A DNA stretch of 64,000 nucleotides from assembly GCA_963922205.1 (NCBI GenBank), contig CAWUHX010000029.1:1426001-1490000 (forward strand). Direction: 5' to 3'. Below are positions 19,101 to 52,124 of the stretch, piece after piece. The DNA comes from Romanomermis culicivorax. Taxonomy: Eukaryota > Nematoda > Enoplea > Mermithida > Mermithidae. Positions within the stretch are counted from its first letter, which is position 1. Every line of letters starts with the position of its first letter. The position numbers were made by a program, and so were the translations under genes. The notes beneath the pieces were generated by a model. The model saw nothing but the letters and a program-made list of their open reading frames with translations. It was not told the DNA's origin and did not search any database.

Positions 19101-22100
19101 AACTAAACTTCTTCAAAATAAGAAATTTCCATAACCTTACCAACGAAAGACTTCACAACCATGTTTGAAAGAATGTGGTACATAAGGATACGTCCGTCGG
19201 CGTAGCCAGCTAATAGTAAATGTTGATAATTGATGGTCGGCTGAATAATGGTGGCCATACCGGGCATGTAATCCAAAATCTTCAACGACGTAACGAGTGG
19301 ACAAAGAGGTGGCCTTATCCAGCTCGTCAACGGTACAATAATTGGATAAACGCAAACATTGTCTACCCAATACATTGCTTGATTGAGCAAATTATTTAAT
19401 ATTTCGGTGTTACGACCTAGAAACAAGGAAAAATCTTACGACTATTAGCAGGTATGAATCGATTGATACCGCACTCTGAGGTACTGGACTACCTTTCGGT
19501 TAACTAAAAATTTCGCAACTAGATTACGCATCCTGAAGACATATTAACTATATGCATACCCATAATCCACTATACAGTGGCGTCGAAAATATCAAAAAAA
19601 ATGAAATTCGTTTTGAACTTCAATTTAAATATGTTTTACCGTTAGAAAAATAAATCAGTGTGATTTAGCCGACCTGGATTTATTTCGATACAAATATTGG
19701 GAAAATCTGCCCTTTATCGATTTCATCTAGTACGGAACTTTCAGCTGTTTCCATCAGAACTTAACACAACTATTTTGAAACAATACAACTTACTTCGGGT
19801 GAAATTTAACCTGCCGATCAATTCTGCAGCAAAGTATTTCGTGGAATAAGCTAACGTATCGACTGACGGCCGAATTACCGTACCGTATAGAATATGCAAA
19901 TTGTGATCCAGGAGTTGACTCAATGATTCTTCGAATATGCTCAACATATGTAACAAATTTGTGACGTTGAGAATAGAGTCCAAGTAAGAGTAGTTGCATA
20001 AACTTTGTTCTTCGAAATCATTGACAGTTCCTTAAGGATATAATGAGGAAGAAGATGGATAATGATGAGAAAGAATCGAACGTCAGCTAATTTAGAAAAA
20101 ATTTGGTGAGTTTAAAAAAAACATGATAATTTTGAATTCTAACGTTTTTACACATACATGCACCGTATATACCTGCTTGAAATACGTGGTACCAGAAGTT
20201 GTGGGCAGCTCTACGGTCGTAGATAATTTTACCCGTACTAGGATGAAAATACTGCGGCGCCGAAAGTCGTGCCACCAAGGGCACTTTACCACCTACGTTG
20301 TCTTGCTCATCGGCGTTATTATACTCGCTCCATCTGTACATCTCAGAAATATTTCTGTGATAAGTCTAAAATAACGAATCGATCAAAAGATCGTAGATGC
20401 TCGGTAAATTCTGCCACGGCAGGATCTAAATTTTATCGTTCTCCCCAAGGTTTTCACAACAACTATGTGTTACTAGGACAAAAATAGATTTTAAATACGG
20501 CCCCTGGAGCGTAGGCATGGTAAAAATGGTTTATGAAGGGATTTCATGCTCTGTTTGGTTTTTTTTGTCTTAAAAAAGCCAATTTATTAGCACGTTACTC
20601 AACAGATCACAATATTAAGTTAATTTGTAGTTATTTTTGAAAGCAATTTTTGACAGCTCAACTATGCAATTCATAGTCCTTGTAAAAAATTACTAACCAG
20701 AGAGCTCTTAGATCGACAGAACGACATCCAATATTACAGATACAGTAATTTTTTGTGTGTTATTTCTGTCGAAGAAAATTTTTTTGAATTTTCTGCTACA
20801 AATCTTTATACGTTACCTTCAGCTCAGAATTGGTTCGTAGGAATTTGAAACGCACAGCGCTGTTTATCATACTATGGGTCCAATTTAGTATTATTTTTCC
20901 ATCGAAAGTCACCTCATCTACTAAACTGCCTAAAAGGTAAAAATAATTGAAGAACATAGAACAATCCTCGCTGAATAACTTACCAAACATATCTTTCAAT
21001 ATTAACCATGTTAAGCACGGTACAGTGTACCCATAGCCCAAAACATCTTTATTATGATCATTTTCTACGGAAACATTCATATCGGTAGCATTTTCGCCAA
21101 TTAACTCCCATAATTCGGTCTCGGTTAACCCTGAAGAGAAAAAAATGGAAAGAACATAGAAAGTTCTAATTCGAAATAATTTATAATTAATCAATTAAAG
21201 AATTGAAATAATTGTCCAGATACACTCAGAAAAACCGTGACACAATACTAAAAGATGACGTAAATTTACATATAACTAAAATTGAATTGAAATTTTATAG
21301 TTTCACGGTTTGGTTCATTTGTCGTCTTTAATTATTTTTTTACGATTCTTCTTAACATTGCGGTTTATTTTCATTAATATATTTAAATTCATGAAACAAA
21401 TTTTCGACTTATTTATTACTACTACTTAACTCACTTACTGAGATGACTTACCATATCTAGAACATTCCAAATAGCTACACCAAGCACCAATCAATGATTC
21501 AAAGGGCGCAACGACATGTGCATAGAGCTTTTCCAATTTCTCAATAACGCTGATAAAATACGTGGTCATTTTCGTAGATAAAAACTGACTGGGTGGTGAG
21601 AAATTGGAGTGCCACGTTGCACATTCGCGACCCAAAAACTTAGCCAATAATGGCGACGGGGTAGGCTCGAAAGAAAGAAATTTCATTACAGTTTGTTGCT
21701 GTTCTGACGATAAAGTACGCTTATTGGAAGATAAGTGAGCCTTGACAATTCCGAATAAGTCGTCCGCTGATATATTAGGTACCTATAACGAACATCATAT
21801 ATATGCATATGAGAATTCGTCAACAAGAGATTGATTTGGGACCAAAAACCTCGAAGAAGAGAACTTTATTGTGTTTGAATGAAATGTGTTCGAATCAAAA
21901 TAGATATCACCACATAATTCAACAACCTGAACAAGATTCACGTGACAACGTCCGCTCGAATCTGGCTTAATTGGAAGCATGTTCAAATTCAGAAACGATT
22001 TTGTTACAGTTGCAACGAAGATGACATTCATCGGCAATTCCCTGGGCACCCAAGGGCAAAAATTGAACGTTCGGCCAGACGCATAGGTGGCGTATTTCAA

Positions 22101-25100
22101 TTGATTCAAATCATCCAATAAAATTATTAAAGGCCTCCGCTGTTCGGCAGCTTTTTCGGACGCCCGGGCGCAAACCTGGTCAAAAAAACGGAAAACCTTG
22201 TCTGTCGTAAAAGCTGTTCCGAAATATTTCATCAAAGGGTACAATTCGTAGGTCAAACAAATTTGGATACACACGCCCCGTAAAAGTTCGTGGGCATATT
22301 TGGATGACGAACAAGAATTGATGAATCGAGACACGATTGTCACTTCCGAATTGAGCCATTTAGGAGCAAAAGTCGATACGCGACGTAGAATTGTACTTTT
22401 TCCCGATCCTTCGTCCCCCTGAATAATTATAGGGCAAGATGGAGCAACAAGAGCGCCGGAAAACCATTTGGAGATACTGCGGAGACATTCGGATTTGTCC
22501 CAAGTAACTAAAAATTAATGAAAAATATTACATTGAGTTGAACTCGAATGAGTTAAATCTAAAGATCCTTTCTTGACAATTATTTCACAGAAACCAGAAC
22601 TAGCGATCTTAGAATAGTGTGATAGCAAAAAATATTCATTTATGCTTGAAAAACTTCTTGATAAAATCGAAAGATGCATTTTTTAAGACGAATCATGCTG
22701 AATGCTGAACTTATAAATCTACCCATGTGTAATAAATTCAATTTTCTTACCATTACATTTTTCCGAGACAGCAGAAGAATGCAATTGAACGTTTGAGAAA
22801 CTTTTGGGTTGTTGCAGCGCGTTAGCGAAAGGATATAAGAGGTCGAAATGAAAACGTATTTGTTCGAAAAGCTGACCGATTTCAACCCGAGTGCAAAAAA
22901 AATATTCCACGTTCGGCTGATTTTGCAAGCTCGACCAATCGTAACCGTTTGCATAAGTTCGATCAATTAATTGTTTCATTTTGTAGGTCAATTCTTGAGC
23001 AAAATAACTAATAGAATCGTTTGACTGTTTTTTTAATGCTGAATTTTGTGCCTGATGTTGAGTTTTACTTTCACTTTGAAATTGAATCAGATTTGATTTT
23101 TCTAAACACGACAACAGTTTCTCATGGAGTTCGTTCATTTGAAAATCGCCGTCATCTAAATGCACAGAAGAAAATCAAAATATACAAGAATATCAACAAA
23201 AATCGATGAACGTTGCCATATCTATGCATGGTCAGTCAGTCTAGGAGGGAGGTAAAGTGAGATTTTGTCAAGATAGTAAATATATATTAACTGGGTTTTT
23301 CTAAGAAACCTCAAGCAGAAAAAGCTTGAACGGCCAAAATCTTTCAGTAATTGGGCTCCTGTCAACGAAAGCTACAAGTTAGAACAGCTTCAGAGTTGAA
23401 AAAGTAGTAGCAACTCGCATATGATTCAAAAAACCCAGACAGTGAATGCTTATCTGCTCAAAATCTATGCGTAGTGAATGAGCACCCGCCAGGCCTGCTA
23501 GGGATTATACCCCTACCATAAGCCCCAATGCGCAGGTATGAACGTCGCCAAAAAGGAGACCATGAAAGAGTATCGTGAAACTTTTCAGCCAACAAGTGGC
23601 AATGGTCAAAATGTCAATATAACTAAATTCAGACTAACGTCTTTTAGACATAACATTTTTATAAACAGAACATTCTCTAAAGAATTAATTTAGCAGATAG
23701 ATAATTGGATTGTAAATAAATAAATTATTCTGACATCAACAAGATTGTAGGTAAATCAATTAGTCTGAGTTGTCGTCAAAACAGATACGATAAAAATTAA
23801 CTTGTGCAAAAATCTATTTTAAGTTAATTGAATCCTCACACTGAAGTAAAGCTGTTATTAGATTTACACGTATTACCTGAATAATTTTTTAGGTAAAATA
23901 ATGAAGTTCCGAGGTCGCTGTTTCTATTCTTTCCATCATCCAATACGGCTTTCGATATCATTTGCTCTAAGCAAGGACGGTGGAAGAGGAGGTGCTAAAA
24001 ATGTTGATACTCAGACGTGAAAGTTAAAACGTGACATTTTTATTATAGATGTAATTGGGTACGATAGAAATCTCCACAGGAATTTTCAACTATATGGCCA
24101 GTCATATGAACACATCCCAAGATTCTGAAAGGCTATCACAGGCTAGGGTGTGGTTCCCCATCCTTTGGAATGTGGAAAATTTAAGAATTCTTTAATGGTA
24201 AATAGTCATTTCCGAACGAAAAACCGGAAAAATGTCAACTCTTTCGGCAGTTAGCTACATAAATGCGCATTTCTATGATATTTTAGACCATAAAACTATT
24301 TTTAAACCAATTTATGAGTTGTGAGGCAAAAAACTTTTTTCTTTCATTGCCCTGCCTTTGCACGTGACAAACATTTTCGCCTCCGCATAAAGCAGCACGT
24401 CAATAAACTGTATATCTTAATTGCGCATACTTCTCTGCTACAAACGACATAAATATAAACATACATGTAATTGGGGGGGGGGGGTGCTATGGGAATCTGT
24501 TGGGGTGGCTCCAGGTGCATGTGTTCAGCTTCCGGCGTCGGTGCGCAGGCGGTTGGACGCGGCGAAAAGTGGCGAGAAAAGAATGATAAATTTGCATAGA
24601 TTTATGCTGCCACTGTTTCGCGTGTTTTATGTCTTTTTGTCATTATTAAAAAAGATTGAGTTTATGGAGCGACGCCTCCATCGCCTTTCTTATAATATTT
24701 TGTTTATTATTATTTATTTGGCCTCGCCAGTCGTCACCCAATACACTTTGGACCTGTAAGTGTATTGTTTTGTGAGCGTAGGGGTTGGAGTTTTTAAGAT
24801 TAGGTTTGGAGACTTGGGTAGGATCTCCTGAGGTATGTGCCAAGGTGTTCTGCCTGAGGTTTAGTGAAAGTTCTGGCGAGTATCTGGTGAAACGTCTGGG
24901 AGAGTTTTTGGTTGGTTGTTGTTGTTAGCCTGTGGTCAGAACTGTTGCATCGTATTGACCCCACAGTAGCCTAACAAGTGGTGGACTCTTAACGCCTCTC
25001 ACGACGGATAACCGGAGAACCACCAGAAAAATAACTAAACCTCCTGGGTTTTATTTACAGGCACATACTGGAAAAATTAAGAAAATGAGTATTCTGGTAG

Positions 25101-28100
25101 GAAAAACGTTGAGGACTCCTCCTAGGTCACACGAACCTAGTGTTTTGAATCTCGACTCTGCTGAAGAACATGCAGCGGTAGAACAGGTTCAAGCACAGGC
25201 GCCTGAGACTGAAGGAAGGAGAGAGAGTAGAAATGCCCAAGTGGCAAGAATGGAAGAGGAGTTGAAGAGAAGTAGTTTTGAGATGGCTAGGCTAGCCGAG
25301 ATTGAAACTACGGTAAGTGGTAGTGTCAGAGGTCAGCAGACCTCTTAGAGAGAGAGACCGACGTCGCCCCCGAAGTTGGTCCATCCAATGGCCGAGACGC
25401 TGGAGAAGATTAGACGGAAGTCGAAACCGGCATGGAGGTCAAACATGGTGGACATGAATTACTACGAATATTACGAGGACGCGCCGGCCGATTTATACCA
25501 CGATAAATATTCGAGGCGATACGACCCCGAAATGGCGAATTTTATTCGACGAGAGGAGCAAAGGGATCGAGTTGATCCCAAGGACATACGAATTAACGCG
25601 CTGGAGAAAAAGGTGGAATTATTGATCAAAGTTATCGAAAGCGCACAAGTCAAGGAAAAGGAAACGGAAGAAGGTCAATGGAGGAAGATAGGTGAGTCTT
25701 CTTACCTTGAGAATAGAGTAGAGAGAGTAAGTGAACCTAAGAGAGAGGTTCATTCAGAGGTTTATATAAGGTCTCAAGAAGATAGAGACAAATATTTGGG
25801 TAGAAATAGAGGTTGGACTGAGGAGCCGCAGAGTTCGAGGAATGCTGAACAAGCACAATTGAATGCCTACGGTTACTCAGAGAATAGGAGGTCGAGGGAA
25901 AGGAAGGTGACTATTTGCGACGAATCATCCCAGGGAGAGGATAGGTTTTCTCGTCCTACTCCTTGGAGAGATACCGCAAATAGAGCTGACCTTAGCCCTG
26001 AGAGGAGGAAAAAGAGGAGGTCGAAGAGTCGAAAGAGATCTCACAGATCGAGAGCTAGGAGTAGACATTACTCAGATAGTGATAATAGCAGTTCATCTAG
26101 GTGGAACTCTAGCTCAAGTGTAGAAGTTGATGTGAGAGATGTGGTAAAGGCCTTGAAACATAGACCTTTACATGATAATATAAAGCCGACGGAGGCTTTG
26201 AAATTTTTTACTGATCTGGAAAGTGAATTTCTGGAGAATACTGCGGATAAGGTCAAGAAGGAGTGTTTGAGAAAGTTGTCTCAAAATATGGCTAGGAGGA
26301 TAGCAAGAACATTCTCAAGTTATACAGAAGCGCAGAGAAATATTTTAAAGTATCTCGCGCCGACTTATGATTTGATGATGCTCAAAAGAGTTGTTTAATA
26401 TGAAGCAGGAAGAAGGCGAGTCAGCCTTAGAGTTTTTAAAGAGGTTAAGTAATCATGTGGATCTGGTCTATGCAGATCAGAGTGATCAAGTAAGGCAAGA
26501 GAATATTATTAATGCCTTCATTTATAAAAGTAGTCCGTTATATCAGACGGAGTTGCAGGATGCATTGCCATCCATGAAAGCTTGGCAAGACCTTGCATAC
26601 GCTGTAACTCAGATTGATAAGAAGTATAAGAATGTGTTTACTACTTTTGGAGCCAAGGATAAACCAATTGTGGTGAATCAAGTTGTAGCTATGGAGGAGA
26701 AGTGCCCGGAAATTGCTTTTGTAGGGAATGCTCTGTATGGAAGTACTAAAATATATAACCAGACGAAGTCAAGACCACAAAATCAGTTGCAAAAGGCAGT
26801 GGAAGAGGAGAGAAATGAGGAGAATGCTGAAGAGATGCAACCTGGCCCGTCCCCTCGTGATGTCAAAAAGTCTAACGAGGAGCAGGCCAAGGAGTCTTTT
26901 TTAGCTATTCTCTCAAAGGAATGGCTACAATTGGTTCAAAAGGTGGATAAATTACAGGTTACTCAGAATGAAGCTTTAAAAGAGTTGACTACTGTGAAGA
27001 CTGCCTCTGGTGAAAAGCAGAAGCAGTTGAAGCAGCAGAGACCCTACTGCATACATCATAAGAACAATACTCATGCTACGGAGGAGTGTAAAACATCAGC
27101 ATACCGGCGTCAGCAACAGCAATGCGGTGGATTTAACTGTGGCATGTCTAATCAGTATTATGGTGGTGATAGAAACGCTTCATTTAGAGGAAGTTTCAGA
27201 GGTAGAGGTGGACCTCAATTTGGATTTAGAGGAAGAGGAAGAGGTGCCTATTATGTAGGATTCCCCGAAGAAGATCAAATGTACGGGTATGACCCAGAAT
27301 TTGAGAGATACAGGGAATTCTGCAGACTTAGAGAACAAGGCATCCAGTTGCAGAGGCAGCCTCAGTTGATGTTACCTGCGTCAACTAGTCAACCGGCTAT
27401 TCAGGCTAGTACTGTCCAGGATCAATCTGGATCATTTGTTTCGAACCAGTGGCAACCTGGTTCGCATAACGTAATGGTGACAAGCCATACGGATGTGGAT
27501 AATGAAAGCGAACAGAGTAGAAACAAATCTTCTAGTTTGGTTCTCGGAAGTATTATTCACCTGGATAAAGTGAAAACTCTAGAAAAAGTGAAAGAAAGAG
27601 ATTTGGCTCATGTGAAGTATGGAAGGAAAGCAACGGACATAGAGAAAAGATTGTTGGAAAATTATCTGAAAATGGTTCCGTTCTATATAAATGTAGTTAT
27701 TAAAGAAACGGCTACCAGAGCTTTGATTGATACAGGAGATCAGTGTACGGTCATGTCTTCTAAGCTCTTGAAAAGGGCATTAGACGTTCATTATACAGTG
27801 TATCCTCGTATTCTTGAAGTGACTGTAGCTGATGGAAAAATTGTGCATGCCTATGGGTATGTACCAGTTTGTATGAAGACGGAATTCCAAAATTTTCCAG
27901 TCAATGTTATAGTGTTGCCAGATGCAGGTGAGGACCTGATCTTGGGCACAGATTTTTTAGCACACCCAGATTTAGGTGTGGTGATTGATTTTAAAAGAAA
28001 TGCCATGACGATACAAGACATTGAGAAGAAGATTGACGTAGTTCAAGTTCCTTCTATAACTACTGTGCAAACGGTAATGGTAGAAGTGACTAAAGTCAGT

Positions 28101-31100
28101 GTGGCGTCGACTGATTGCATAAATCAAATTGTTTATCCAAAAGTTTGTCTGCTAAAGACAACTGTTGCAATTGTTGCATGTAGTAAAACCTACATTCCAT
28201 ATGGAACAGATGTTTTGATGAAGGCAAAACTTTGGGATCAACATGGAGATGCCACGTTGAACGGAATTATTGTCGAATCAAAAGATTCTGAAAGGAAGTT
28301 CAGAATGGAGAAAGTGGTTGTAGACGGATCACAAGAGGAGTTTGTAGTACTAATCTCCAATACCACAGGTTCTGATTGTCGGTTTGAGAGAGATCAAATC
28401 ATTGGCTATACAGAATCTATGTTAATTGAAGATGATGATACGTACAAGAAAGTGAAGGAAATGAAAAAAATAAAGGAGAAAAAGGAATATCAGACCTGTA
28501 TGGTAAAGGAAGGAATGCCTGCATTATCAAAAGCTGATTCTGTAGAGTTCTATACTTTACTGTGCAAGATGATATCAAAGGCGAAAATATCGGAAAAGCA
28601 GAAAACGGAAGCTATAGAGTCTTTGTCGAAGTACAGAGACCTCTTTAGTTTGCCTGGTGATCCAGCTACTACAACCCCAGCTCTGATGTGCAAGATAGAT
28701 ACAGGAGATGCAAGACCTGTAGCAAAGAGATATTCCAGAGCTTCAATTAATAGTCGGCCAGGAGTAAGGCGACATATAAAGGAGATGTTGGATCAGGGAG
28801 TGATCGAGCCCTCGAAGTCACCGTGGGCTGCACCTCTGTTCCTAGTTGGAAAGAAAGATGGAACTACGAGACCAGTAGTTGATTTTAGAGGTATAAACGA
28901 GGTGACCAAGGATGATAAATATCCCATCCTGAGAATGGATGACTATTTAGATTGCCTTGGAAGAGCTAAGTTTTATACGACTCTAGATTTGAAGTCAGGA
29001 TATTGGCAGGTCCCAATGGAGGAGGAGAGCAAGGAGAAAACGGCTTTCATATGCCAAGAGGGCTTGTTCCAGTTTAAAGTGATGCCGTTCGGATTGAAGA
29101 ATGCACCTGCTGAATTCCAAAGGATGATGGAGAGAATCCTTGGGGATTTAGTATGGAAAATTTGCCTAGTGTACATAGATGATATTATCATCTTCTCGAA
29201 TACGTTCGAGGAACACTTAGAGAATTTGAAAATGGTGCTAGAAGCGTTGAGGAAGGCGAAGTTGACTCTTAAACCAGAGAAATGTGAATTTCTTCCCGAG
29301 AAGGTGCACTTTTTAGGGCACATCTTGGATGCGAACCAAATTTCTCCGAATCCTAAGAAGGTCAAGGCGATAACGGAATTTCCATTCCCGGATTCTGTTA
29401 AGAAAATGCAAAGATTCCTAGGTATGCTACAATGGTGTAAGAAATTTATACCGGACCTAGCAGCACTAGCTGAACCTTTGTACAAATTAACAGGCAAGAA
29501 GGGAACATGGAATGTGACGGAGTTGCATTACACAACTTTTGAGAAGCTCAAAGTAGCATTGACCTCAGTACCTTTCTTAAGACATCCAATTCTAGATGGA
29601 TCTGCGCGATTCATTCTTCAAACGGATGCCAGTGGAATTGCATTGGGACCAGTGTTATGTCAAGAGACTGACTCGGAACGTTGGGTAATTGCCTACAATA
29701 GTCGGATATTGCGGGCGGAGGAAGAAAAATGGTGCGCCACTGAAAGGGAATGCTTAGCTGTGGTATACGGCCTTAAAATTTATAAACATTATCTTTTGGG
29801 CCAAAAGGTCACGATTCAAACGGACCACAAACCATTATTATCAATGAGGGTCAACACACAGACTAATGACAAACTCAAGAGGTGGTATGCATTCATTTGC
29901 CAGTTTAATCACAAGTTGGAGTACGTGCCTGGCAGACAAAATGCCATGGCTGATTTTCTCTCCAGGAAGGAGGAACCGGATGAGCAGAAAGAGAAGTTGC
30001 CACCAAAATGGGAGCTTATCTTTCAGAAAGGAGAAGTGAAATCTCTTGCTGAAGACGAAGTCATTAACCAAAACCATAAACTTTTAGTGAAACAACTTCG
30101 GGAACTCAGAGGAGATGAAGTGGATGAGGCTGTAGGAGTCTTCGCCCCGGTGAAGATGGCCACAGCTTCAGTGGCTTCAAAGTATGATGTTAGTGATGAG
30201 ACTCGACATAATTTTTCTCCAGAATTTGATAATTATCCAACGCTTGAGAAATATGAAATTGAGGCAGTAGTCACGAGACAAATGGCAAAAAACTTGCAAC
30301 AGGAGGAAAAAGGACATCCTCCTGGGCAAGCAGAACCTAAAGAGGAAGTGAAGAGAATTTTTGAACCGAAGGAGAAGGAGTTTGAAGAAGCCCCAGAAAT
30401 TGAAGATGGTAGACCGAAAGGGCTTATCTCAAACGCCTTGATGGCACAGTTGCAAGCAAAGGATAAAGATCTAAAAGTGATCTTCGAGAAACTAGGTGCT
30501 AATAGTAGCACTAAGTCTCAAAGTAACTTTTATATAGATCAAGGGATACTATATAGAGAGACTTCTGGCGAGGCAGAGGATCAAGTTGTTGTCCCCTCTG
30601 TTCTCAAAAAAGTTGTCCTACATCAGTATCATGGAGCAGTGATGATGACGCATCAAGGGTTTAAGAGAACCCTTGCTATTATTAAAAAGCGGTTCTGGTG
30701 GCTGAGCATCGAAAAGGATGTTCGGAGCTGGATCAGTTTTTGTCCGATATGTCAAATTGCGACTCCAGGAAAGGCTACTATACCGCCATTAAATCCAATT
30801 ATTCCTAGAGGACCATTTGACATAGTCTCTGGATATTGTGGGAATTTCTCCCATGAGTGAGAAGAGACCCTATGTGATAGTATTTGAAGATTACTTTACA
30901 AAATGGGTGGAAGCAGAAATGATTCCAGATCAATCTGCTGTAACCATTGTGGACAGTTTTCTTCGGAATATTGTGTTCAGGCATGGAACCCCAGTGAAAT
31001 TGTTGAGTGATAATGGTTCATGCTTCACAGCTGATCTGATGATGTCAGTGTGTAAATTATTGGAGTGTCAGAAGATTTTCACAACTGCCTACCATCCACA

Positions 31101-34100
31101 AGGAAATGGAATGGTTGAAAGGTTTAACCAAACCTTGATCAAGCAGTTGCGAAAGGTTGCTATAGAAGATTCAGATAAATGGGACAGATATTTGCAATCT
31201 GTCGTTTTTGCTTACAATGCCACACCTCATACCTCGACAAGATGTTCTCCATTTGCCTTATTGAGAGGTCATGAGGCTAATTTTGGCATTAGTATTGGTG
31301 TTGCTAGAAACATAGTTCTGCCAATGAACTATGAGGCTTATAAGCATATACTAACTGAAAGTTTAGTAGAAACTTATGAAGTCATTTCTGAGAATATCAA
31401 GAAAGCTGCGGAGATCAACAAAAAGTTTTTTGACCGTAAAGCAAAAGCTCATGATTATTCTGTCAATGATTGGGTTTTGCTGAAAGTCGATAAACAGAAA
31501 AAACTGGGTCTGCCGTGGCAAGGACCGTATGATCTTACTGATAATAGGAGATTATCAGAGAACGTGCTTGAAATCGCTCACAGGAGAGAGCCGCTGAAAA
31601 AGCAGGTGGTATCCGTGAGCAGGTTAAAGCATTTTTGCTACGAGACCGGCAGATGGCTGCAGTCTAACGACGTGTCATCTAAGGACACGCAGTTTACTGT
31701 AGATTCAAAAATCAGTAATTATCAACTGCCGTAGTGTGAAGCGCTGTGTTTTTGGTGTGTGTGTGTGTGCGTATGATTACCCCCCCCCCCCATATTTTTT
31801 TGTCCCAAATTTTGTAATTAGGTACAAATTGTATTTAATTGTATTTATTTATGTATTTATCATGTATTTTCAAATTTTTCTCGCGTAAATCTTAAAATTT
31901 TCAAAAATTTTTGGTAAAAAACCACTCTTCACAAAAAATCCAAATTCTTAAAATTTTTTCGCAACCAAAATTTTAAATTTCCCCGAGCCCGATTAATTTT
32001 TTCGGAGGAAAAAGTAGTTGTTGCCCACCAATTCTGTGAATATTGGAAGAATTGGGAAACCGCTGAAATTTTAGAGTGAAAATAGACAAAAAGTAGCGAA
32101 AGCGGAAACTTTGTCGATTTTTCAGCTCTTAAAAATTTTATTAAAAATTTTTTGAAAATTGATAGTGCCGAATTGCAAGAATTCGAGAAAGAAGCGGAAG
32201 AAATGTCCCGGCCCCCCAATGTACGCCAGACAAAACAATATTTGGTCACGGACCCCCACGTGACCTACGGTCAGCCGCAGGTGCGGCAAAACAATTGGTA
32301 TTTTTTAGTCGATGGTAAGCGACCTAAGTTTTTAAACTTAGTTAATCTTAAAATTTATTGGGCAAAGCAGGATGTTATAGCCCACGGGTGTCTAGACCAA
32401 GGCCTAGACAATTGTAAAAATTTAGTGGGAACAAATTTGTTCTGTCAACTTGAAAAAGTGTGGCAAAGCTGCCCGTTGCGCAAAAATTTGGACTTTTTGC
32501 GAAACTACATCATTCCTCTACACACATAGCGAGTTGAATAAATTCGTCTATGTGATGGGGAAGAAGTGGAGCGTAGCAACTAGTCGACTAGGGGTAGATA
32601 ATTTCAAATTTATTTAAATTTTTAAATTCCATCTTATCCTATTTTTCTACGAATTTTCTCATTTTGGGTAAACTAGTAAAAATATTTTAAAATTCTTCTT
32701 GGAAATTCTTAATTTATTAGTTGGATAGGCCGTTTTGGGCGTTGGATTGAGACGGCTAGCAGTCGAATGATGGAAGACGCAGGTGGTCTGTGCGTTTACT
32801 CCCGTATAAGGTAGAAGTCGGGGTCGCACTTGTGTTTAACTATCTGCCAACACTAACCCAATATATGTTTGGTACCTTATTGTCCCCTGCTTGCAATTTT
32901 TCTTTTTCCTTTTTTGTGCTTACTATCTGTGGTGAAGGTAGAATTTAACCGATGTTTGTCCGCTAAGAAAGATTTCCATTAAAAAGTTGTAAATATTCTG
33001 TATGAATTTTTTAGACTACAATGTCAAGCACATTGTCAGAGTCGGGGAATTAGAGCGATGGTTCGCCACAAACTTCGGAAGATTTCCCTTGGAATTAAGG
33101 GAACTGAAAATGGTCGAAATAGGTAAGGTGGCTGCATTGATTGAAACCTTGGAGGTGAGTAGGTTTCGAGGACAGCCAATTATCGGTTTCGATACCGAGA
33201 AAGTTACTCAAGAGTATGTGAGTAAGGTTTTCACGACTTCTGGGGTTGATAACCCAAAAGGGAAGGAGTTCGCGAGAGTCATTAGCTTCTCGATGGTGAC
33301 TGGAGACGCCTTTGTTGTAGATACTACGACAATCATGCCGAAGGAATGGACGCTCATTCATGAGCTCTTAGATTCGGACATGCTTCTTGTTGGATACAAC
33401 TTGGTTACAGATCTGGTCGCCATCTGGAACGTTAATGGCGCAGGCAGAAAGCACCAAGATGTTGATCTGACACCGGAGATCAAGCATAGAGTAACGTCTT
33501 CGTATGGCCGTTATTATGACGTAGCCAAGGTAGGAGACCAGTTGAACGGGAGATTTTTGGCAATGTCCAGGAAGTTGGGACTTTGCCCAGAGACTTTTAA
33601 GCTGAAGGGGTTGTTCATGGAGCTGTATCTGGCGGATATCGGTTATTTCCAAATCGATTTCCGTCAGAGAGCGCAACGTGAACGATTCTGTAGGCACACG
33701 TTAATGCAATTTGAAATACGGTATTCAGCACTGGACGCCTACTACTCATTGTTGGTCTTCCTAGCGTTTTTCCACTATGAGTTAGCTATGGAAGTCGAGG
33801 TCGGATTCCAGTACTTTCCGCATGATTTGATGAAAGCGGATCAAATTCAGATAATGGCTTTCAGGTTGTATAGGTTTTTCAATATGATACATGGTGAGAA
33901 CTTTCCGCAGACTTTTTGCGGAAGTCCAGAAGTAGAAAAGCCGCAGTCATCGGCTATTTATCACATGATGAGACAGGAAGTGTATGCCCGTATGGCTGCC
34001 CAAATGGATACCTCATTTGGAGGCTATACGGAGTACAGCTTCCCTCATTACGAGTCAAATCCGAAGAGAGGGAGAGAAGTAAGTATCCCTAAAGGTATTC

Positions 34101-37100
34101 ATCCCGATTATACCGTCAAGGAAAAAAGTAAGAATGCGGACGGGTATGATATGGTAAGTGAGGATGAAGAGTTTGAAGAAGCTTTGTCGGAAAAGCAGAT
34201 TAGAACTCGAATTACGAAAAAGGTGATAGATATGGTTAATCAAGGGAAGAGTTTCAGTAGACTTGATGAACCAGTGTCTATGGTTTTATACGAGAATTTC
34301 CTAAGGTATAGGAAAGAAACCAAGCAGTTGTTGGAGATAACATCTCTGGAAGTTGATTACCACGAGTATGAACCAGTCAGAGTTTCGAATGGTAAAGACT
34401 CGTACGTAAGACAACACTGGAGTATGGATATCGCTCCTTATTCTGAAATATTGATTGAGGACAATTTTAAGAATTTGGAGTCAGTGTGCAACAAAATTCC
34501 GCTTATGTTTCATTCATTTTGGCCAGCTTGTAGAGAGGAAGCGGAGGAGTACCTTACCTCTCTCCTTGACCATAACTATTTGAGATCTTTTAGCCCTGAG
34601 GGAAAGGAACAACTCTTGAAGATGTTGTGGAGGGGAGAAAGGTACGGTCAGTACTTATCATTTTTGAATAGTCTTCCAGTAACGGAGGTGCATACGCCAA
34701 CAAAGGGCGATGCGATTACATGTTGGGGAAATCGTTTCGGATTTTCGCCGATCCGATTTTGGCCCAAGACAAAATCATGGGAGCAAAGATCGGAAGATAA
34801 GAGGAAGCATTTGGCGGAGTGTCCGCAGTACAAAGATAATTCGTACTGCTTTCAGAGGTTTTAGTTCCGCCAAATAGCTGTCCGAGTTCCAGGTTTGCGA
34901 TACCCAATAGATATGAGTGAGGACGCTACAAAGGAGAATCAGAAGAAGAGCGTGTTAGCGTATCAACCGGAATAAGTTCCAGATTACGAGCCGCCATGTT
35001 TCGAGCCGATATTGCCGTCCGATGCTCCAGGTTTTCAAATTACGCATGTTGGCGACAAGGTTATAGTGACGCCGATAGGTAAGCAGCCAACAGTGCCGGT
35101 TACAGGCACTGAGGTAAGCACAACGGTGAGTCAGCAATCTGGAGTTGATATGAGTAGTATGGATCAGGTGCAGGGGATGCAGGCTGAGCCTGTTGCGGCG
35201 AAAGCACAGCAACAAGCGATACCTGCAGACCTCAACACCCCCATAGACTTGAATCAGGTAGGAGACGATTTAGAAGTGGACAAGGAGGTCACTGTTGAAT
35301 CGTTGATACAGCCTGATCAAGAAACACAGGTAACCTCTTTGGTAGATCAGACAGAAAGTTTACTTTCTGGAATGGATGTCAGGGCAGAGCAAATGCTGGA
35401 TGAAAGCAATCTGATAAGGATTGCTGCAAGTCCAACAATAGAAGAAATTGAAGTAAGGCTCAGGGAGCAAGCTGAGAAGGAAATCAAAAGGCAGAAAGAG
35501 ATTTTACAGCTTGCGGAGCAAAAAGCCAGATTAGATCAGCAGCAGAAGCAGCTGGAGCAGGTATTGGCTGGTTTTACGGCGCAGCCGACGCCTCTGGCAG
35601 CACCTACAGTCATGCAAGCTCCAACCAAGCCGCCTACTGCTTATCATATCCCAAAATTGCCGGCGCAGCCTGCTAGTACGCGGGCCATCCAACCTGCGGT
35701 CAGCAAGGTTACGCCGACAGTTCAGATAGCGCATAGAGATCAAGGTATAGATGGTGGTATACCAGGTATGTATACTGCTGAGGAGGTTAGAAAGTTCAGA
35801 GCGGAAGGTCGTATGGATGACCAAATTAAAAGATTAGGAAGGAGGAAGTTAGCCCGAAGGGCCAATAGAGCGAAAAGGAGAGATGACGAAGATGTTGTTG
35901 AAATTACTGATGATGAAGGAGAAAAGACAGGGAGTTCTACCTCTGTGGACTTGAAGTTTGCTGGATCTACTACTTTATTGACGGATTCAACCTAGTCCAA
36001 GACTGGAACTACGCCAATGAGCCTGACGCCTGGAACCACAAGTTCTACGAGTCAAGTGCAGTCGACGGTCGCTTCGGCTAAAGTACCTAGTAAATCAGCT
36101 GCATCTCAGGTAAGTGCAACGAGGAAAAGTACCTTGGCTAAGCCCATGTCTAAAGTGGATAGGACTTCTCAGCAGAACCAGAGCAGTTCCTCTGGGAAAA
36201 AAGTTATTTCTAAACCCTCTACATCGGAACCGACTAAATCGGTCAAGAGAAGTAGAGATAAGGAAGCAACTTTGGAGTACCTGAGTTCTGTTTTGAGAGA
36301 CTACTGGGATGTCCATAAGAAGTTTCTCATGGTGAAGGGAAGAATAGATTTTTGGACACCGGAGGTGATCGAATTCTTTGCTCAGGATATGCCAGATGAT
36401 AATAGGAATCAAATCATCTGGGCATTGGTGAATAATGGAGTAGAGGAGCTTTACGAGAACTATGGGGATCACTTTGATGTTCAGGGTGGTTTCCTGTATT
36501 ATCACGTAAACGTTCCTGAGCCCATTTGGGAGTATATTTGGCTCAAGTTCATGCCAAATTGGTTTCATCACTTTGATGCAGAAATAGTAATGGCAGCCGT
36601 GAGATACCTATGTACCATGGTGTTGCTAAAGTTAGAACAGCAGCAGTTGGGCCCAAGACATATTGGTGCAGATGATGCATGGGCCAAATCATTTGTTACG
36701 GAAAGGTATTATTCTATCTACCTGTGGGGAGAAGGTAGTACTGCATTCAGGGAAGCGTATGCCAACGGAATGCAGGAACACCAACAAACTGCAGTGGATA
36801 TGGCAGCGAAAAGAAGGTTGTCGGATATGGTTCAGAAATTTTCTGGTAAGTTCCAGAAGGCCGAGGATGAGGAGGGGCAACCCTTCAAGATTCCCATTTT
36901 AACGGAGAACATCCAGGTCCAGGAGCCAGCACTCGCGACAATCGTCTCACTCGCAGAGTCGGCACCAGCCTGGAGTATTCAAATTACCATATGCTAATCA
37001 ACAGAGTCAAGGAAGGTCCAGCACCTCAGCTTCTGGAGTATCTTCCGTAAGTTCCACTCAGGGCTCGTACCAGAGGGGAACTGGAGGGGGATATGGCTGA

Positions 37101-40100
37101 GGCCGAGGTCAGGGACAGGGTCAAGCAAGACCCTTTAGAATGGTTAATCCGCAACCGTATAGAGGACAGGCGATGGGCGGACCCCCTCGTGCGGCCCAGC
37201 CTCGAGGAGTTTTTGGGGGATTCCTCTGGGGTCGTGGAGCTCGGGGTGGTCCCTACCCTCGCCGTGGTAGCTTCCAATACGGCGGTTATGGTGGCCGCGG
37301 GCAACAATAATTTTATATAGCCGCATACTTTTTGGACCAAAATTCGTTATTTCCTACAAATTTTATTTTAAAAAACACAAAAATACAAAAACACAAATAA
37401 AATACAAAATACAAAAAAAATATATTATCTCGTTTTATTGTTGCTTTAAATTTTAAATTTTTTCTCGTTTCCAGTGCCCAAAAGTTGCCCGGCGAAATTC
37501 GTCTTTCCGTCCATCTTATTTCGGGCGTGTATATAGCCCTCGTATTTTTCTCGTTTACTTTCAGGGCCTGAAAAAGATGAAGACGTGAAAAATTTTATTT
37601 TGCATTTATAAAATTATTTCGTAAATTTGAAGTATTTTATAGAAAAATCTTTTTTACTGAGTAGATTTGTATTGGACGGAGCGACGTGGCGAGCAGCCGA
37701 CCATAGAGGAAGCCCACCTGGGGTACCTCATCACCAAAGTTGTAAAAACCAGTACACGGGAGAAGAGGAACGGCGACGCCCCGGATCTAGGCACAGATCG
37801 ACGTCAAAGTCCAGGCCAAACTACGTTTGTGATCGTTTCCGGTAGCCTGAAAAGGAGTGCCCTGCCGAATGAATTGGTCAAGGTCGCCGTCACCTGAAGG
37901 ACCTGGTAGGGGCTGGATCACATTTTGGAGGGGGTAGCCCCAAAAATTTGTTTTCCCAGGGGAAAACTGTTATGCAGTCGGGGCCTCAGTATGAGACTCA
38001 GGCTGCAGAAAGGTTTTCACCTCCCGTTGGTCGGTTTTGAGGGCCGAGGGATGTTGGGGTGGCTCCAGGTGCACGTGTTCAGCTTCCGGCCTCAGTGCGC
38101 AGGCGGTTGGACGCGGCAAAAAGTGGGGAGAAAAGAATGATAAATTTGCATAGATTTATGCTGCCACTGTTTCGCGTGTTTTATGTCTTTTTGTCATTGT
38201 TAAAAAAGATTGAGTTTATGGAGCGGCGCCTCCATCACCTTTCTTATAATATTTTGTTTATTATTATTTATTTAGCGTCACCAGTCGTCACCCAATACAC
38301 TTTGGACCTGTAAGTGTATTGTTTTGTGAGCATAGGGGTTGGAGTTTTTAAGATTAGGTTTGGAGACTTGGGTAGGATCTCCTGAGGTACGTGCCAAGGT
38401 GTTCTGCCTGAGGTTTAGTGAAAGTTCTGGCGAGTATCTGGTGAAACGTCTGGGAGAGTTTTTGGTTGGTTGTTGTTGTTAGCCTGTGGTCAGAACTGTT
38501 GCATCGTATTGACCCCACAGTAGCCTAACAAATCTGCCCCAGAAATCGTCGACCATATGGCTAGTCATTGGGCGACCGCCCCCCAGAATTTTTAAATCCA
38601 ATGGCTAGCCATATGGTAGTCGTAGGGACCCCATACTTTTGGTCGAAAAAAATACTTAAAAATGTCAATTTTTTGATGAAAAATGACAACTTTTGAACAA
38701 AAAATGGTAAAAAATGTGAATTTTCTTGGCGCTTCACACCACGAATACATTTTTTCAGTCTTTTTAGAAAAAAGTACTATTTTTTGAAATATTTTTCGAA
38801 CTTTTTTTGGGAAAAAATAGATTTTTTCCTTGAGAAACCCCTCCCCCAAAATTTTGGGAATTACTGACCCCCGGCTCCAAAAAAGTCGCCCAACCTCCCC
38901 AGACCTCGGAGCCCCGTTACATGTATGAAAATGCGAAAAAACTTCCTCTGTTGAGCAGGTCGAACTTCGCATTGCAAGTAGACTTCATGATCGCGAAAAT
39001 AGGCAGCAAAAGGGTGCCGGAGTAAAAAACTTCCCTCGCACAATGATTTTTTTGGTAGATTTAGTTCATGTACAAAGAGACTCTTGCAGAAAAGTATTGT
39101 TTCATTGGCCCTCTTAATACATTTTGGGCCATTTTTGACCTCCACCATTAAAAATTCTGCTGACTAATCTCCTTAGATATCCGATACATGTTACATGTAT
39201 GATTTTTACCCCTGATTTGTCTGGCTGATTATCGTTGTCGTATTTACTGAAAAGCGCCATTAATGCCTTCATATCGGATTCCGAAATAGATTTCCTAAAA
39301 AAGAACATTTAATATTGAATAGGATTAAAACTAGAAAGTACACACCAATGTATAAGATTGGTTGAATTGGATATATTTCTTATTGTTACGACAACAGTAA
39401 ACTCTGATTTAGGAGCGTCAAACTCCCGAAAAAAATTGACACAACATCATGCACACACATGTATAGGAGTTCAGAAGTCTGGAGGGGGTTAGGCGGAGTT
39501 TTTTAATGGGTGAGGTCAAGTCTGTAGCCAGAAATTTTTTTCGGGGGCCACACATTTTTTCATTCAATTTAGCGTAGGACTGACATTTCTGACTTGACTT
39601 GGAAAAAACCAAAGGTCACCTTCGCCTCTTTTTAACACTTCAAACATTTCGGGGGGACATGGCCCCAACCCCCCTGCCTACAGGCCTGGGTGAGGTCATA
39701 GGTTGTCCAGGATTTAGGGGTGCTGTCATTGAACGAAAAAAGTTCAAAAGTTTTGTTTGAGAAACATATCAAAAAATATTTCTCGCGGCTTTAAAGTATC
39801 TGAAAAATCATATTGGTGGCGCTAATGCATTGAAAAAATCTACATTTCTACATTTTTGAGTATTTTTTTGTTCAAAAGTCATCATTTTCTACCAAAAACT
39901 GATCAGTCTTTTTTCGTTCAAAGTTGATGATCCTTTAACGTAATTTATCCCCATGATTGGAAAATCTTGGAGTGGTCGCCATATGGCTGCCCAATGGTCG
40001 ACGATCCCTGGGAAGCGGATTTTTATAGTACTTCCCCTGCAATTACATGTAATGTCATGTATGCATGCACGAAGTCAAACGCCTCTAACTAGAATAAATA

Positions 40101-47063: not shown

Positions 47064-49178
47064 GTAGGAGAAGAATGAAAACGAAAATTCTTTTCCGATA
47101 ATCGAAGTTGGTGGGTAAAGAGTTTGTTGATTCGATTCGATTCAGAAACTTCTCTAATCGTAGGAGCAAAAACAATCATTCAAATCTCCGGGCCGATCCA
47201 TTCGAATATGTTCTGAAGTTATAATGAAACATGAGCTGAGACAAAAGGAATTATGAGAATAGATGAAGCCAAGAGAAAAAACAAAGCGGGAAATGGTAAA
47301 ACTTAAAGAATGACTAAGAGTAAAAAAACAAACACATACAGTTTTGAAAGCAAAATTTTAGAACAGATAAAAGAAGGCACTGATAAGGGCAGCTGTTCAA
47401 AACCATTTGACCAATACCTAGGTTGGAAATGGTAAATTTTGACCAAAATTGTGAACGTCAAATTTTTTTCAAGGCCCTTTAAGGGTGTCTAGGGACTTGA
47501 ACCAGGGTTTTTCCCGCACAGTGCGAACTTTTTTTGGGCTGTGGGGAAAATTTTTTGGGAATTTTTCGTACAGGACGGAAATTTTTTTGGGCGTCTCTAC
47601 TGCTGGCATTGATGAAAGATGCACTTTGGTGCAATCTAGAAGGTCAAAGCCTCAAAGTTTTTCGGCGCTCCGCGCCGGAAATCACAATTATTTATGATAT
47701 TCATTGCAAATAAGCTGAAGCGCAGCCAGAAAGAAGTTTAGTTTCATTTCCCAGTTATCTTTCACTGTTTCATTGAATCTGCTATCTACTAGAGTGAGTA
47801 AAACTCGACGCTTTCTTAGAAAATATTGTGACGATCGGGATTTCCGCGAATTTGTTGATTTTTAATAACTTTCTCCATACGTTTATTTAATACCGTCATT
47901 TTTCTCATTTTCCAGCGTTCTAGAACCTCAAAAAAATTTTTAATTAAAATCAATTGAAATCTATAAATCTCCAGCTTTAATCACAGAAATGACAGCAGCA
48001 ACTATTAATTTTGCTCAATCAATCGAAAATAATGTTCCTGACTCCTGAGCTAGAAAAACGAATGTGTCCAACTTGGCGTCCATCCTAACTTAGCGTCCGT
48101 CCTAACTTGGCGTCCGTCCTAACTTGCGTATTAGTCCCATGTTGGCGTCTATTTTATGTCCTAACTTGGCGTCCATCCTAACTTGGCGTCCGTCCTAACT
48201 TGGCGTCTAACTTGACGTTTGTCCTAACTTGGCGTCCGTCTTAACTTGGCGTATTATATGCTTTGGATCAAAATGAACCCAAATTCACTTTTAATTCATT
48301 ATTGAAAAACATGCATTTACGACTAATACACATGAATCATTACAGCTGTAGGAGTTATTCAATATACGTAAATTTTACTCATATTTTTCTATATATAGAA
48401 ATAGTTTTCCAATGAAGAAAGCACATAGTTCCACAAAGAAACATTGTGTTTTTGCACGCAAACTCGTAGGTTTCCAGAATTTCGAAAACTGAATAAATTA
48501 TCCATGTTCTCAAAATCTAACAGACTTCCCCTAAAAATGTTCATTTGAATTTGAGTTTTTAAATATAGTTAATCCATTGCGCTGTTCTCAAAAATACGGA
48601 TGATTTTGGAGAAGCAAAGAGAATCGAGAAAAGCAAAGAGATCGCCCGATAAATCGTTGCAGTCCATTCACATTTTCTTCTTACTTCTTTCTTAACCTCA
48701 TTTCTCACAATGCATTTTCATTAATTTTTTATTTATCCGTTTAAACTTGAGGCCCAAACAAGACAGAATACAGGACAGAATGAAGGAAGGGAGGAACACG
48801 ACTAAACAAAAAATTCAAAATAATTTCGTGATAAACTAGGGATCAACTCTCAGCTCCCCCGTTGCTCTGGCAGAGCAGCCATGGATAAAGGTGATCTGGA
48901 GCTCCGTACATTTTTGTCAGTCAGTTTACTGTAGTTTACATAGCTGAAAGGAAAGCGACAAATAAGTTCCTTGGTTAATTATGGTTGATTTTTTGACTCC
49001 TCTCTTGCTAATTCATTCCTGAACAAGCACTTCAGCCTTGCTCCAGCAATGAGTGCTATGTTTCGAACTTCGATTTACATATGCATGTTGAAAAAGATTC
49101 AATCATACACTTGAAAAGTCACCTTACTTAGATATTTTAAATAGTAAAAACAATGCCATTCACTATTTTTCTATTCCC

Positions 49179-50173: not shown

Positions 50174-52124
50174 AGTATCCAGTCTAGGCCTTCTTGGCCT
50201 AGAGACTTGATATTATATGCTAAACCACATGCTTCAGGTCCCTGGCTCTGGCCGAAGCTAAATATACCCCTGGCTCCTGCCGAAGGTAAGATTTGACCTC
50301 CAGATGATAACTATCGGCAAGAACTAGTAACATTACCCAGCACAGACTTACACATAGAAAATCTTCAAAACAATAAACTGTAAATTGCTTCAATTTCACA
50401 AGTTGAGGACAGCGATTTTCATAACGGAATAAAAGAGATTTTCTCAGAAAATATAGCCGACTCTGAGCTCAATTGTACGAAAGTAATCACGTAAGAATCA
50501 TCGAGTGCCTCCACAGGCTCTACATTAATGCGCGCAAAACCCATTTCGCCAAACGCGGAGCATCTTAACGAAATTACTTGCCCCATTTGTCATATATTTG
50601 CTGAAAAGTCCGTTTTCTGTGCGGCGATAAGCAGCGAACAAGGATGATTCTAGGAGACAGGAAGGAACCTGTACACTAGCTGAGCGACTAACTGAACTTT
50701 TTGAAGGACAACGAAGCTTACGAAGGGGGAAAGAATGAGAAGGACTTCATTATGGCTGTATACGTATCCATCGCTGGGATGCAAGACGACCATGGATGCA
50801 TTTGCATTAAACACAATGAAAATCTAGATTTTCTTGGCTTTAAAAGAAAGCACATAACCTGGATGCATAAATAGCCTGACATGAGAGGGGAAGATGAAGG
50901 GAGATTCTTCTTCATTTTACAGATTCAGAAACGAGCCAACCGAACCCAAGTTTCGCTTTCGTTATCAAAATCGATCGCCAGCTACATAAACCAGCTCGGC
51001 TCCCACACACATTCGCAACATTTTTCCCGAGAAGGGAAGAAAAAAATAGAATAGTTTATCATCATTATTATCCTACTACTGTTATGTGGGCATAAAGTTG
51101 AGCTCGGAGCTTCATAGGACGGCCCAGAAAGATCCAATGCCATTACTATGCTCCTACACTGTGCACTATGCTCTTCGAAGCGTCTATCATTTTTCTTCAC
51201 TCCTGTTTCACACCAAACCCAGCTTTTGACTACTCGAAGAGTCTACTTGCAGCTGCAGTATCAACTCTAACGGAGAAGGAAAAAGCAAATGCAAGTAACG
51301 AAACGCGAAACTGGACAGATGAAACTTTTTCCATGAAGAATGAAAAGCATATTTAAGCTTCCGATCTGAATGCAACCAATTTAGGAAATACGGCTACAGT
51401 ATAACTATAATTTTATGCTGATTCAGATAAAACAAGACTTATTTGGATTGCGGGCGAAATAATTGTTGATTAAAGGAACTCAGAATCATACTTCAGTCCG
51501 AATATGTACACTTGTACGATATCAAGCACAATTATAAGATATTAAATAATTAAAAAATAGTAACTGCTATATTGGATATGCAACTCGCTTTTTAGGAACT
51601 CCTCATGAAATGGGCACCCTGATGCTGCCCATTATCGCAATCGGGAAGTCGAGATGAAAAGCGACGATCGGTGTTGAATTGGTGCAGGATAATCAGCATG
51701 GACCGGGGCGCCATAAAAAGAAAGTTTGATGGTGAAACAATCACTAGTTTTGCTATATTATTTTTGATGAATATTTGCCATACGACGTACAGTAAAATAT
51801 AATACTCGAACGTGTTTTGTGTTTTATATTTATTACTATTGATGCATCTATAATATTTATTGACTTGCATAAATTCCGGCGTACGGTAGCGTTCTATCCC
51901 ACAGTCCGTCCTAACTTGGCGTCTGTCCTAACTAGGCGTCCGTCCTAACTTGGCGTCCAATGCTACATTAAAGACTAAATACAGAAATCTCAACTTGGGG
52001 TCTGTTCTAACTTAGCGGGTCACAACTTGTCGTTCAATGCATTATAAAATGTTGTTAAGACGGGCGTCAAATTAGGACGGACGCCACGGACCCAAAATTA
52101 GGATGGACGCCAAGTTCGGTCACA

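What the first reader, a model, noticed from the sequence alone, without database searches (positions are those of the whole stretch)
33002..34864. LTR retrotransposon that carries its own DEDDy 3'-5' exonuclease
Seen: a 620-codon, uninterrupted ORF inside the LTRs, same strand as pol, with Exo I Asp64-Thr-Glu66, Exo II Asn133-x3-Asp137 and Exo III Tyr241-x3-Asp245, plus the connecting Leu-Lys-x-Leu helix. Known: this set defines the DEDDy class (RNase D, WRN exonuclease, MUT-7/Nibbler, EXD2). Ty3/Gypsy elements normally add envelope or chromodomain modules, not an exonuclease. Inferred roles: trimming or proofreading of the element's nucleic acids, or degrading/remodelling host piRNA/siRNA or their precursors (Nibbler-type enzymes act on small-RNA 3' ends; arenavirus NP shows that a DEDD exonuclease can serve immune evasion).
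Basis: partly seen in the sequence, partly recalled or inferred. Interest (0 to 1): 0.92.

Follow-up and report, generated by a model that had tools for sequence, protein, structure and literature searches.

The report
Exonuclease gene carried by Gypsy retrotransposons
A family of jumping genes in an unnamed invertebrate carries its own RNA/DNA-trimming enzyme, and the copies show that natural selection has kept it intact; a similar enzyme was reported before in rotifer jumping genes, so this is a new variant, not a new kind.

Summary

First, the 620-aa ORF is a truncated allele: in 16 of 31 fetched copies the frame runs about 1,442 codons, so the exonuclease is the N-terminal domain of a larger ORF3 with an RG-rich tail. 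Second, at least 71 copies exist. Across 30 of them dN/dS is 0.09, and D64, D137, Y241 and D245 never vary. A sister Gypsy family and a distant one also carry DEDDy ORFs behind pol.

Precedent: bdelloid Juno/Vesta LTR elements carry DEDDy ORF3s (2017). New here are the fusion architecture and the strong purifying selection. Activity, substrate and host taxon remain unknown.

The parts
24494..24497 (.). target-site duplication AATC, left
   Evidence: read
24498..24976 (+). 5' LTR, TG...CA, 479 bp
   Evidence: 97.3% identical to the 3' LTR over 480 aligned bases
25376..26398 (+). gag-like ORF; no Pfam family found; gag is broken across frames in this copy
26391..30860 (+). pol: aspartic protease (residues 433-525), reverse transcriptase (820-979), RNase H (1071-1172), integrase zinc finger (1401-1457)
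   Evidence: RVT_1 2.4e-39, RT_RNaseH 4e-29, Integrase_H2C2 2.9e-16, gag-asp_proteas 3e-8
30838..31734 (+). integrase core and C-terminal part, in another frame than the rest of pol in this copy
   Evidence: rve 9.2e-11
32152..32529 (+). small ORF (125 aa) between pol and ORF3; no family found; status unknown
33007..33014 (+). TTTTTTAG, splice-acceptor-like, present at this point in 31 of 31 copies; function inferred only
   Evidence: read by eye
33002..34864 (+). first 620 codons of ORF3, N-terminal DEDDy exonuclease domain about residues 57-266
33191..33199 (+). Exo I, D64-T65-E66
   Evidence: D64 in 30 of 30 copies, E66 in 28 of 30
33392..33412 (+). Exo II, GYNLVTD, N133 and D137
   Evidence: N133 and D137 in 30 of 30 copies
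33602..33613 (+). connecting helix motif LKGL, residues 201-204
   Evidence: L201 and G203 in 30 of 30 copies
33722..33736 (+). Exo III, Y241-S-A-L-D245
   Evidence: Y241 and D245 in 30 of 30 copies
34865..37315 (+). rest of ORF3 (open in intact copies, interrupted by stops and a frame change in this copy): low-complexity Q-rich stretch, basic patch, S/T-rich linker, a folded-looking part and an RG-rich tail; end approximate
38052..38530 (+). 3' LTR, 479 bp
38531..38534 (.). target-site duplication AATC, right
   Evidence: read

Best explanation
Shown: a multi-copy Ty3/Gypsy family of about 14 kb carries, behind pol, an ORF3 of about 1,442 codons whose N-terminal 270 residues or so form a DEDDy (DnaQ-like) exonuclease domain with an intact active-site set under strong purifying selection; this copy of ORF3 is truncated. 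Inferred: ORF3 is made late from the element, binds the element's nucleic acid through its basic and RG-rich C-terminal part, and uses two metal ions at D64/E66/D137/D245, with Y241, to remove nucleotides from 3' ends. Most likely the substrate is RNA in the element's ribonucleoprotein: trimming 3' ends of element RNA or its primer, or of host small RNAs bound to it, as its nearest folds Nibbler and WRN/RNase D trim 3' ends. How likely: DEDDy domain about 0.95; catalysis is what selection keeps about 0.8; RNA rather than cDNA as main substrate about 0.5. The confidence given is for the whole chain.
Against: The window protein alone is below Pfam's cut-off, the full ORF3 of one copy scores lower still (E 0.13), and phmmer against the PDB finds nothing up to E 10. 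The family-1 profile alone is weak against RNase D/NrnC (probability 13%, P 0.0022). The single-sequence model was useless (pLDDT 31); the good one was steered by an alignment to known DEDDy proteins, and Foldseek gave no match at E 0.001 or better (best 2.1e-3). Two of 30 copies have E66K. No activity, substrate, expression or localisation data. The C-terminal part matched no solved structure significantly, so nucleic-acid binding rests on composition.
Confidence: 0.42

Rival explanations
1. cDNA proofreading or end-cleaning: the exonuclease removes mismatched or extra 3' nucleotides during reverse transcription of an unusually long (14 kb) element, or tidies cDNA ends before integration.
For: WRN and Pol I exonuclease domains, which act on DNA, score about as well as Nibbler in the fold comparison (rows less than 1 apart are tied). 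Length 14,033 bp. Dada DNA transposons with a DEDDy domain were suggested to process cleaved 3' ends (PMC3706591, passages seen).
Against: The domain is in a separate ORF behind pol, not fused to RT. The RG-rich tail suggests RNA, by composition only. No fidelity data.
Confidence: 0.2
2. Counter-silencing: ORF3 degrades or shortens host piRNAs or siRNAs, or their precursors.
For: Best fold match is Nibbler, a small-RNA 3' trimmer; the mut-7 homologue is the top PDB profile hit. Between the window family and its sister the exonuclease part diverges faster (35.8% identity) than the integrase (66.6%), as expected of a host-interaction gene.
Against: Among the copies the domain evolves under strong constraint (dN/dS 0.092), tighter than the integrase tail (0.269 in the same 20 copies), which does not look like an arms race. 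No small-RNA data. Nibbler-type trimming can also mature piRNAs (recalled), so the direction of effect is open.
Confidence: 0.15
3. RNA-binding only: a DEDD-fold module kept for binding or transport, like EXD1 or Egalitarian.
Against: All four acidic residues and the Tyr are kept: D64, D137, Y241, D245 in 30 of 30 copies, E66 in 28 of 30, and all five in the sister family L122, which a binding-only role would not need.
Confidence: 0.1
4. A host gene fragment carried as a passenger, without a role for the element.
For: The window copy is truncated and its gag-pol is broken; 20 of 71 rows have a stop inside the match.
Against: At least 71 copies, dN/dS 0.092, no stop on internal branches, the same gene order in a sister family.
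Confidence: 0.03
5. An envelope-like ORF3 that only resembles an exonuclease.
For: Position behind pol, where env lies in errantiviruses; a possible splice acceptor at its start.
Against: No transmembrane-like stretch (highest 19-residue Kyte-Doolittle mean 1.58, one copy) and DEDDy homology.
Confidence: 0.01

Closest known systems
DEDDy-like ORF3 of bdelloid rotifer LTR retrotransposons (Juno and Vesta clades), Rodriguez, Kenefick and Arkhipova 2017, PMC5408684 (abstract, passages and the whole Discussion seen)
   Same: DEDDy exonuclease ORF downstream of pol in LTR retrotransposons; found in more than one retroelement lineage of one genome; as in that paper, related ORF3s are shared between distant elements.
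   Different: [quoted passage not shown] Here DEDD is intact, the domain heads an ORF3 of about 1,442 codons with an RG-rich tail, copies are many, selection is strong, and no dUTPase was found in pol. Direct sequence comparison was not possible: those sequences are not held here.
DEDDy ORFs of bdelloid Terminons/Athena Penelope-like elements (PMC5408684; PMC6431247, passages seen)
   Same: Retroelement-borne DEDDy exonuclease among several accessory ORFs.
   Different: Penelope-like RT and telomeric; the present elements are LTR, Gypsy-type with integrase.
Dada DNA transposons with DEDDy domain (PMC3706591, passages seen)
   Same: Mobile element that encodes a DEDDy DnaQ-like exonuclease with all four catalytic residues.
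   Different: DNA transposon; the domain sits inside the transposase.
Nibbler / MUT-7 and WRN exonuclease domains
   Same: Fold and active-site order; best fold and profile matches.
   Different: About 14-18% identity in the fold alignments to Nibbler and 11-14% to WRN. No MUT7-C or helicase domain was found in the ORF; N-terminal FGR-x-PL stretch and long C-terminal part are peculiar to the element ORFs.
Giant Gypsy elements with accessory domains, such as planarian Burro (PMC6431247, passages seen)
   Same: Large Gypsy-like elements with extra coding content.
   Different: The passages list other domains (BIR, BCL2, MATH and so on), not an exonuclease, for Burro.

Membership tests
DEDDy exonuclease superfamily | Exo I D-x-E, Exo II D, Exo III Y-x3-D in order | tested here: met
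DEDDy exonuclease superfamily | PF01612 above the curated cut-off (23.6 bits) | tested here: not met
   window: 15.3 bits whole, 18.2 bits residues 1-300; sister L122 18.7, L126 21.8; distant relative L121 41.8 (above). The profile comparison that joins them is strong, so the cut-off failure is read as divergence
DEDDy exonuclease superfamily | DnaQ-like fold | tested here: met
   [not shown]
DEDDy exonuclease superfamily | metal-dependent 3'-5' exonuclease activity | not testable with these tools
   needs purified protein
Ty3/Gypsy (Metaviridae-type) LTR retrotransposon | protease, RT, RNase H, integrase in that order between LTRs | tested here: met
   LTRs
Ty3/Gypsy (Metaviridae-type) LTR retrotransposon | TG...CA LTR ends with short target-site duplication | tested here: met
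   AATC on both sides, read; one copy only
Bdelloid Juno/Vesta DEDDy-bearing lineage | dUTPase domain between protease and RT | tested here: not met
   Pfam scan of pol to E = 1 lists none
Bdelloid Juno/Vesta DEDDy-bearing lineage | DEDDy ORF behind pol | tested here: met
Bdelloid Juno/Vesta DEDDy-bearing lineage | closer sequence kinship to those ORFs than to cellular DEDDy proteins | not testable with these tools
Nibbler / MUT-7 | MUT7-C domain behind the exonuclease | tested here: not met
   no such Pfam match in the ORF or in the full ORF3 of copy L092
env-bearing Gypsy (errantivirus-type) | transmembrane envelope protein as ORF3 | tested here: not met
   no TM-like stretch in ORF3 of copy L092

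The most novel reading that the evidence does not exclude
ORF3 is an old, dedicated retroelement gene: an active, Nibbler-like 3'-5' exonuclease fused to an RNA-binding scaffold, carried by Gypsy lineages whose integrases are only 28% identical, where it serves as the element's own RNA 3'-end processor, small-RNA antagonist or reverse-transcription proofreader. That would be a retroelement counterpart to the nidovirus and arenavirus exonucleases.
Probability: 0.3. Interest if true: 0.85.

Novelty: new variant of a known kind. Interest (0 to 1): 0.55.

Why it matters
The 2017 rotifer report left open whether DEDDy ORFs help the elements that carry them. Dozens of copies with dN/dS near 0.09 and an invariant DEDD/Y set say that selection has kept a working enzyme in this family, which makes the question testable. 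If the activity is confirmed, it adds a nuclease to the toolkit of LTR retrotransposons and offers a natural case for asking whether retroelements proofread, process 3' ends or interfere with small RNAs. It also warns that a single copy misleads: the apparent 620-aa gene is a broken piece of a gene more than twice as long.

Tried and rejected
Single-sequence AlphaFold2 of the 620-aa protein: pLDDT 31, unusable. phmmer of it against the PDB: nothing up to E 10. tblastn against phages and plasmids: no match. Pattern scans of viral contigs and genome contigs with it: no relative. PHROGs and NCBIfam: nothing convincing. Rfam and tRNA scans of the window: none. RNA folding of the pol-ORF3 interval: no more structure than shuffles (z 0.44). 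C-terminal part of ORF3 against the element's own gag: no similarity; against the PDB: two matches, E 0.14 and 0.59. Splicing into ORF3: GTAAGT at 25313 is kept in copy L129 but L130 does not align there, and by my arithmetic joining it to the TTTTTTAG site does not give the exonuclease frame; left open. Passenger and envelope readings rejected as stated under rivals.

Caveats on counts: 71 scored copies are the best of 3,726 candidates, so 71 is a lower bound; I fetched 31 of 71, the top 20 and the bottom 11 of the score list. Choosing by protein score favours well-kept copies and may lower dN/dS. One copy (L107) was dropped from the dN/dS and residue counts because of a register change. Stop codons were skipped in the counts. 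The integrase tail used the 20 copies with a gap-free match. For the distant ORFs I fetched 7 of 116 PF01612 matches, and upstream DNA for two; their LTRs were not examined.

Papers: PMC5408684 abstract, passages, whole Discussion; PMC6431247, PMC3706591, PMC6338049 passages; PMC5348765 abstract only (RNase H and chromodomain, no exonuclease in the abstract); the rest search listings only. Searches that ran. I make no claim that the fusion architecture is unpublished beyond these.
Full report
What is there. An LTR retrotransposon spans 24498-38530: two LTRs of 479 bp (13 differences in 480 aligned bases), TG...CA ends, and AATC on both sides. Between them come a gag-like stretch, pol with protease, RT, RNase H and integrase in Ty3/Gypsy order, then the ORF of the finding at 33002-34864 on the same strand. 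In this copy gag and integrase are split over frames.

The observation. Pfam's only match is PF01612, below its cut-off (E 0.017 whole, 0.0024 for residues 1-300). My own HMM of 37 DEDDy domains (32 from viral contigs, E. coli RNase D, four) ranks residues 1-300 above 2,000 of 2,000 shuffles, but only by 8.9 to 6.8 bits; it places D64/E66 on Exo I and N133/D137 on Exo II. MAFFT with 28 phage domains puts all five catalytic residues in the right columns.

Relatives in the same genome settle the class. PF01612 finds 116 matches at E up to 1 in G000, the best 50.1 bits. Seven were fetched. L122, in a frame of about 1,396 residues, is 35.8% identical to the window ORF over 441 aa and keeps D64, E66, D137, Y241 and D245 (N133 is A). 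L121 and L123-L127 are distant; L121 scores 41.8 bits on PF01612, and L126, also below the cut-off at 21.8 bits, lacks the Exo III Tyr. A profile of all these (A6) matches RNase D/NrnC with hhalign probability 97.1 and P 5e-11, and in the PDB mut-7 homologue (4.8e-6), WRN (7.4e-6) and EXD2 (0.0016). The window family alone is weak (13%, P 0.0022), the distant set alone is strong (92.7%, P 4.1e-7), and the two match each other (75%, P 2.5e-5), in part through an N-terminal FGR-x-PL stretch ahead of Exo I.

Other copies change the picture. At least 71 full-length matches (92-95% identity apart from the window's own; a lower bound, 3,726 candidates) lie in the genome, 51 without a stop in the match. 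Of the 71 I fetched 31. All 31 have the 3' LTR at the expected side and 29 have the integrase end upstream; L107 instead has an LTR about 1.3 kb upstream, so gag-pol is missing there, and in L114 no integrase match was found. In 16 of 31 the frame runs without a stop to about codon 1,443; 30 of 71 rows list a 1,445-aa frame, 8 of them with a stop inside the match. So the 620-aa ORF is a truncated allele. The full ORF3 has the exonuclease at its N-terminus, a conserved part to 620, then a Q-rich stretch with heptad-like repeats (by eye), a basic patch at 949, an S/T-rich linker, a folded-looking part around 1091-1310 and a tail of 72 residues with 46% G+R and no acidic residue (copy L092). No TM-like stretch (highest mean 1.58) and, for the part from about codon 1,034 on, no significant match in the PDB.

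Selection. In 30 copies the mean dN is 0.0170 and dS 0.1846 over 620 codons, ratio 0.092 (0.087 for residues 1-300). In 15 full copies the later parts give 0.145, 0.128 and 0.078. On a tree of the 30 copies, internal branches carry 42 nonsynonymous to 206 synonymous changes and no stop; terminal branches 171 to 376 with 5 stops; the expectation without selection is 2.55 to 1. The last 130 codons of integrase give 0.269 in the 20 copies with a gap-free match, where the exonuclease part gives 0.092. D64, N133, D137, Y241 and D245 are in 30 of 30 copies, E66 in 28 of 30 (K in 2). Choosing copies by protein score may lower these ratios, but hardly from 1 to 0.09 or to zero stops on internal branches.

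Other Gypsy families carry it too. 2.1 kb upstream of L122 holds an integrase 66.6% identical to the window's: same order, sister family, with the exonuclease part diverging faster than integrase. Upstream of L121 a 960-aa open frame holds RNase H (2.1e-16) and an integrase zinc finger (24.8 bits against a cut-off of 25.5) and is 28.3% identical to the window's integrase over 159 aa; it ends about 0.24 kb before the DEDDy frame. The LTRs of these two were not examined. Shared ORF3 features over such distant pol genes fit an old association or repeated exchange from one pool; a tree was not made.

Start of ORF3. Codon 1 is CTG in 24 of 31 copies and ATG in 6, and a TTTTTTAG motif sits there in 31 of 31. 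A spliced message is possible but the one donor tested does not fit in frame; unsolved.

Known background. Rodriguez et al. 2017 (PMC5408684; abstract, passages and the Discussion seen) described DEDDy-type ORF3s in Juno and Vesta LTR retrotransposons of bdelloid rotifers and in Athena elements, with DEDD changed to DEED, no CC or TM domains, and no significant departure from neutrality. Arkhipova's review (PMC6431247, passages) repeats this for Terminons; Morozov et al. (PMC6338049, passage) call the DnaQ-like domain a well-known accessory of LTR elements; Dada DNA transposons have one too (PMC3706591, passages). So the kind is known. The host here is not named. A COX1-like stretch in the genome fits the invertebrate mitochondrial code 5 rather than 9 or 13; many invertebrate groups share code 5, so a bdelloid is not excluded by that. 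Pol lacks the dUTPase that the paper reports for Juno and Vesta.

How it most likely works. Shown: domain, residues, copies, constraint, order. Inferred from the families: a two-metal 3'-5' exonuclease, held on the element's RNA by the basic and RG-rich part, trimming RNA 3' ends (most likely), or proofreading cDNA, or acting on host small RNAs; the data do not decide. Strong constraint with intact acids argues against a binding-only role.

Verdict.

Noticed in passing
G000:C117:992573-993922 (L132): COX1-like stretch inside a 1.03-Mb contig (nuclear copy of mitochondrial DNA or assembly join); 11 in-frame TGA, codon use fits mitochondrial code 5.
   Followed up: partly
L107: A copy with an LTR about 1.3 kb upstream of the exonuclease and no integrase match: gag-pol missing but ORF3 and the 3' LTR kept.
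   Followed up: partly
L126: A further DEDDy ORF (32% to the L121 group) in which the Exo III Tyr is replaced by Ser.
   Followed up: no
window 13499-14098 (-) and 21795-22343 (-): Likely exons of host genes: WD40 repeats (WDR3-like model 3.5e-8) and a weak AAA match (E 0.073).
   Followed up: no
window 48053-48270 and about 51904-51958: 17-bp tandem repeat (AACTTGGCGTCCGTCCT-like) with a further copy near 51.9 kb.
   Followed up: no
window 32152-32529: A 125-aa ORF between pol and ORF3 without any family match; whether other copies keep it was not tested.
   Followed up: no
L090-L120, exonuclease part against integrase tail: Synonymous divergence is about twice as high in the exonuclease part (0.18) as in the integrase tail (0.08) in the same 20 copies, which could mean exchange of the ORF3 cassette between subfamilies; sliding distances are only mildly raised there.
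   Followed up: partly
G000:C158:182213-193990: Three PF01612 pieces with equal scores at exactly 5,778-bp spacing, a probable tandem repeat.
   Followed up: no
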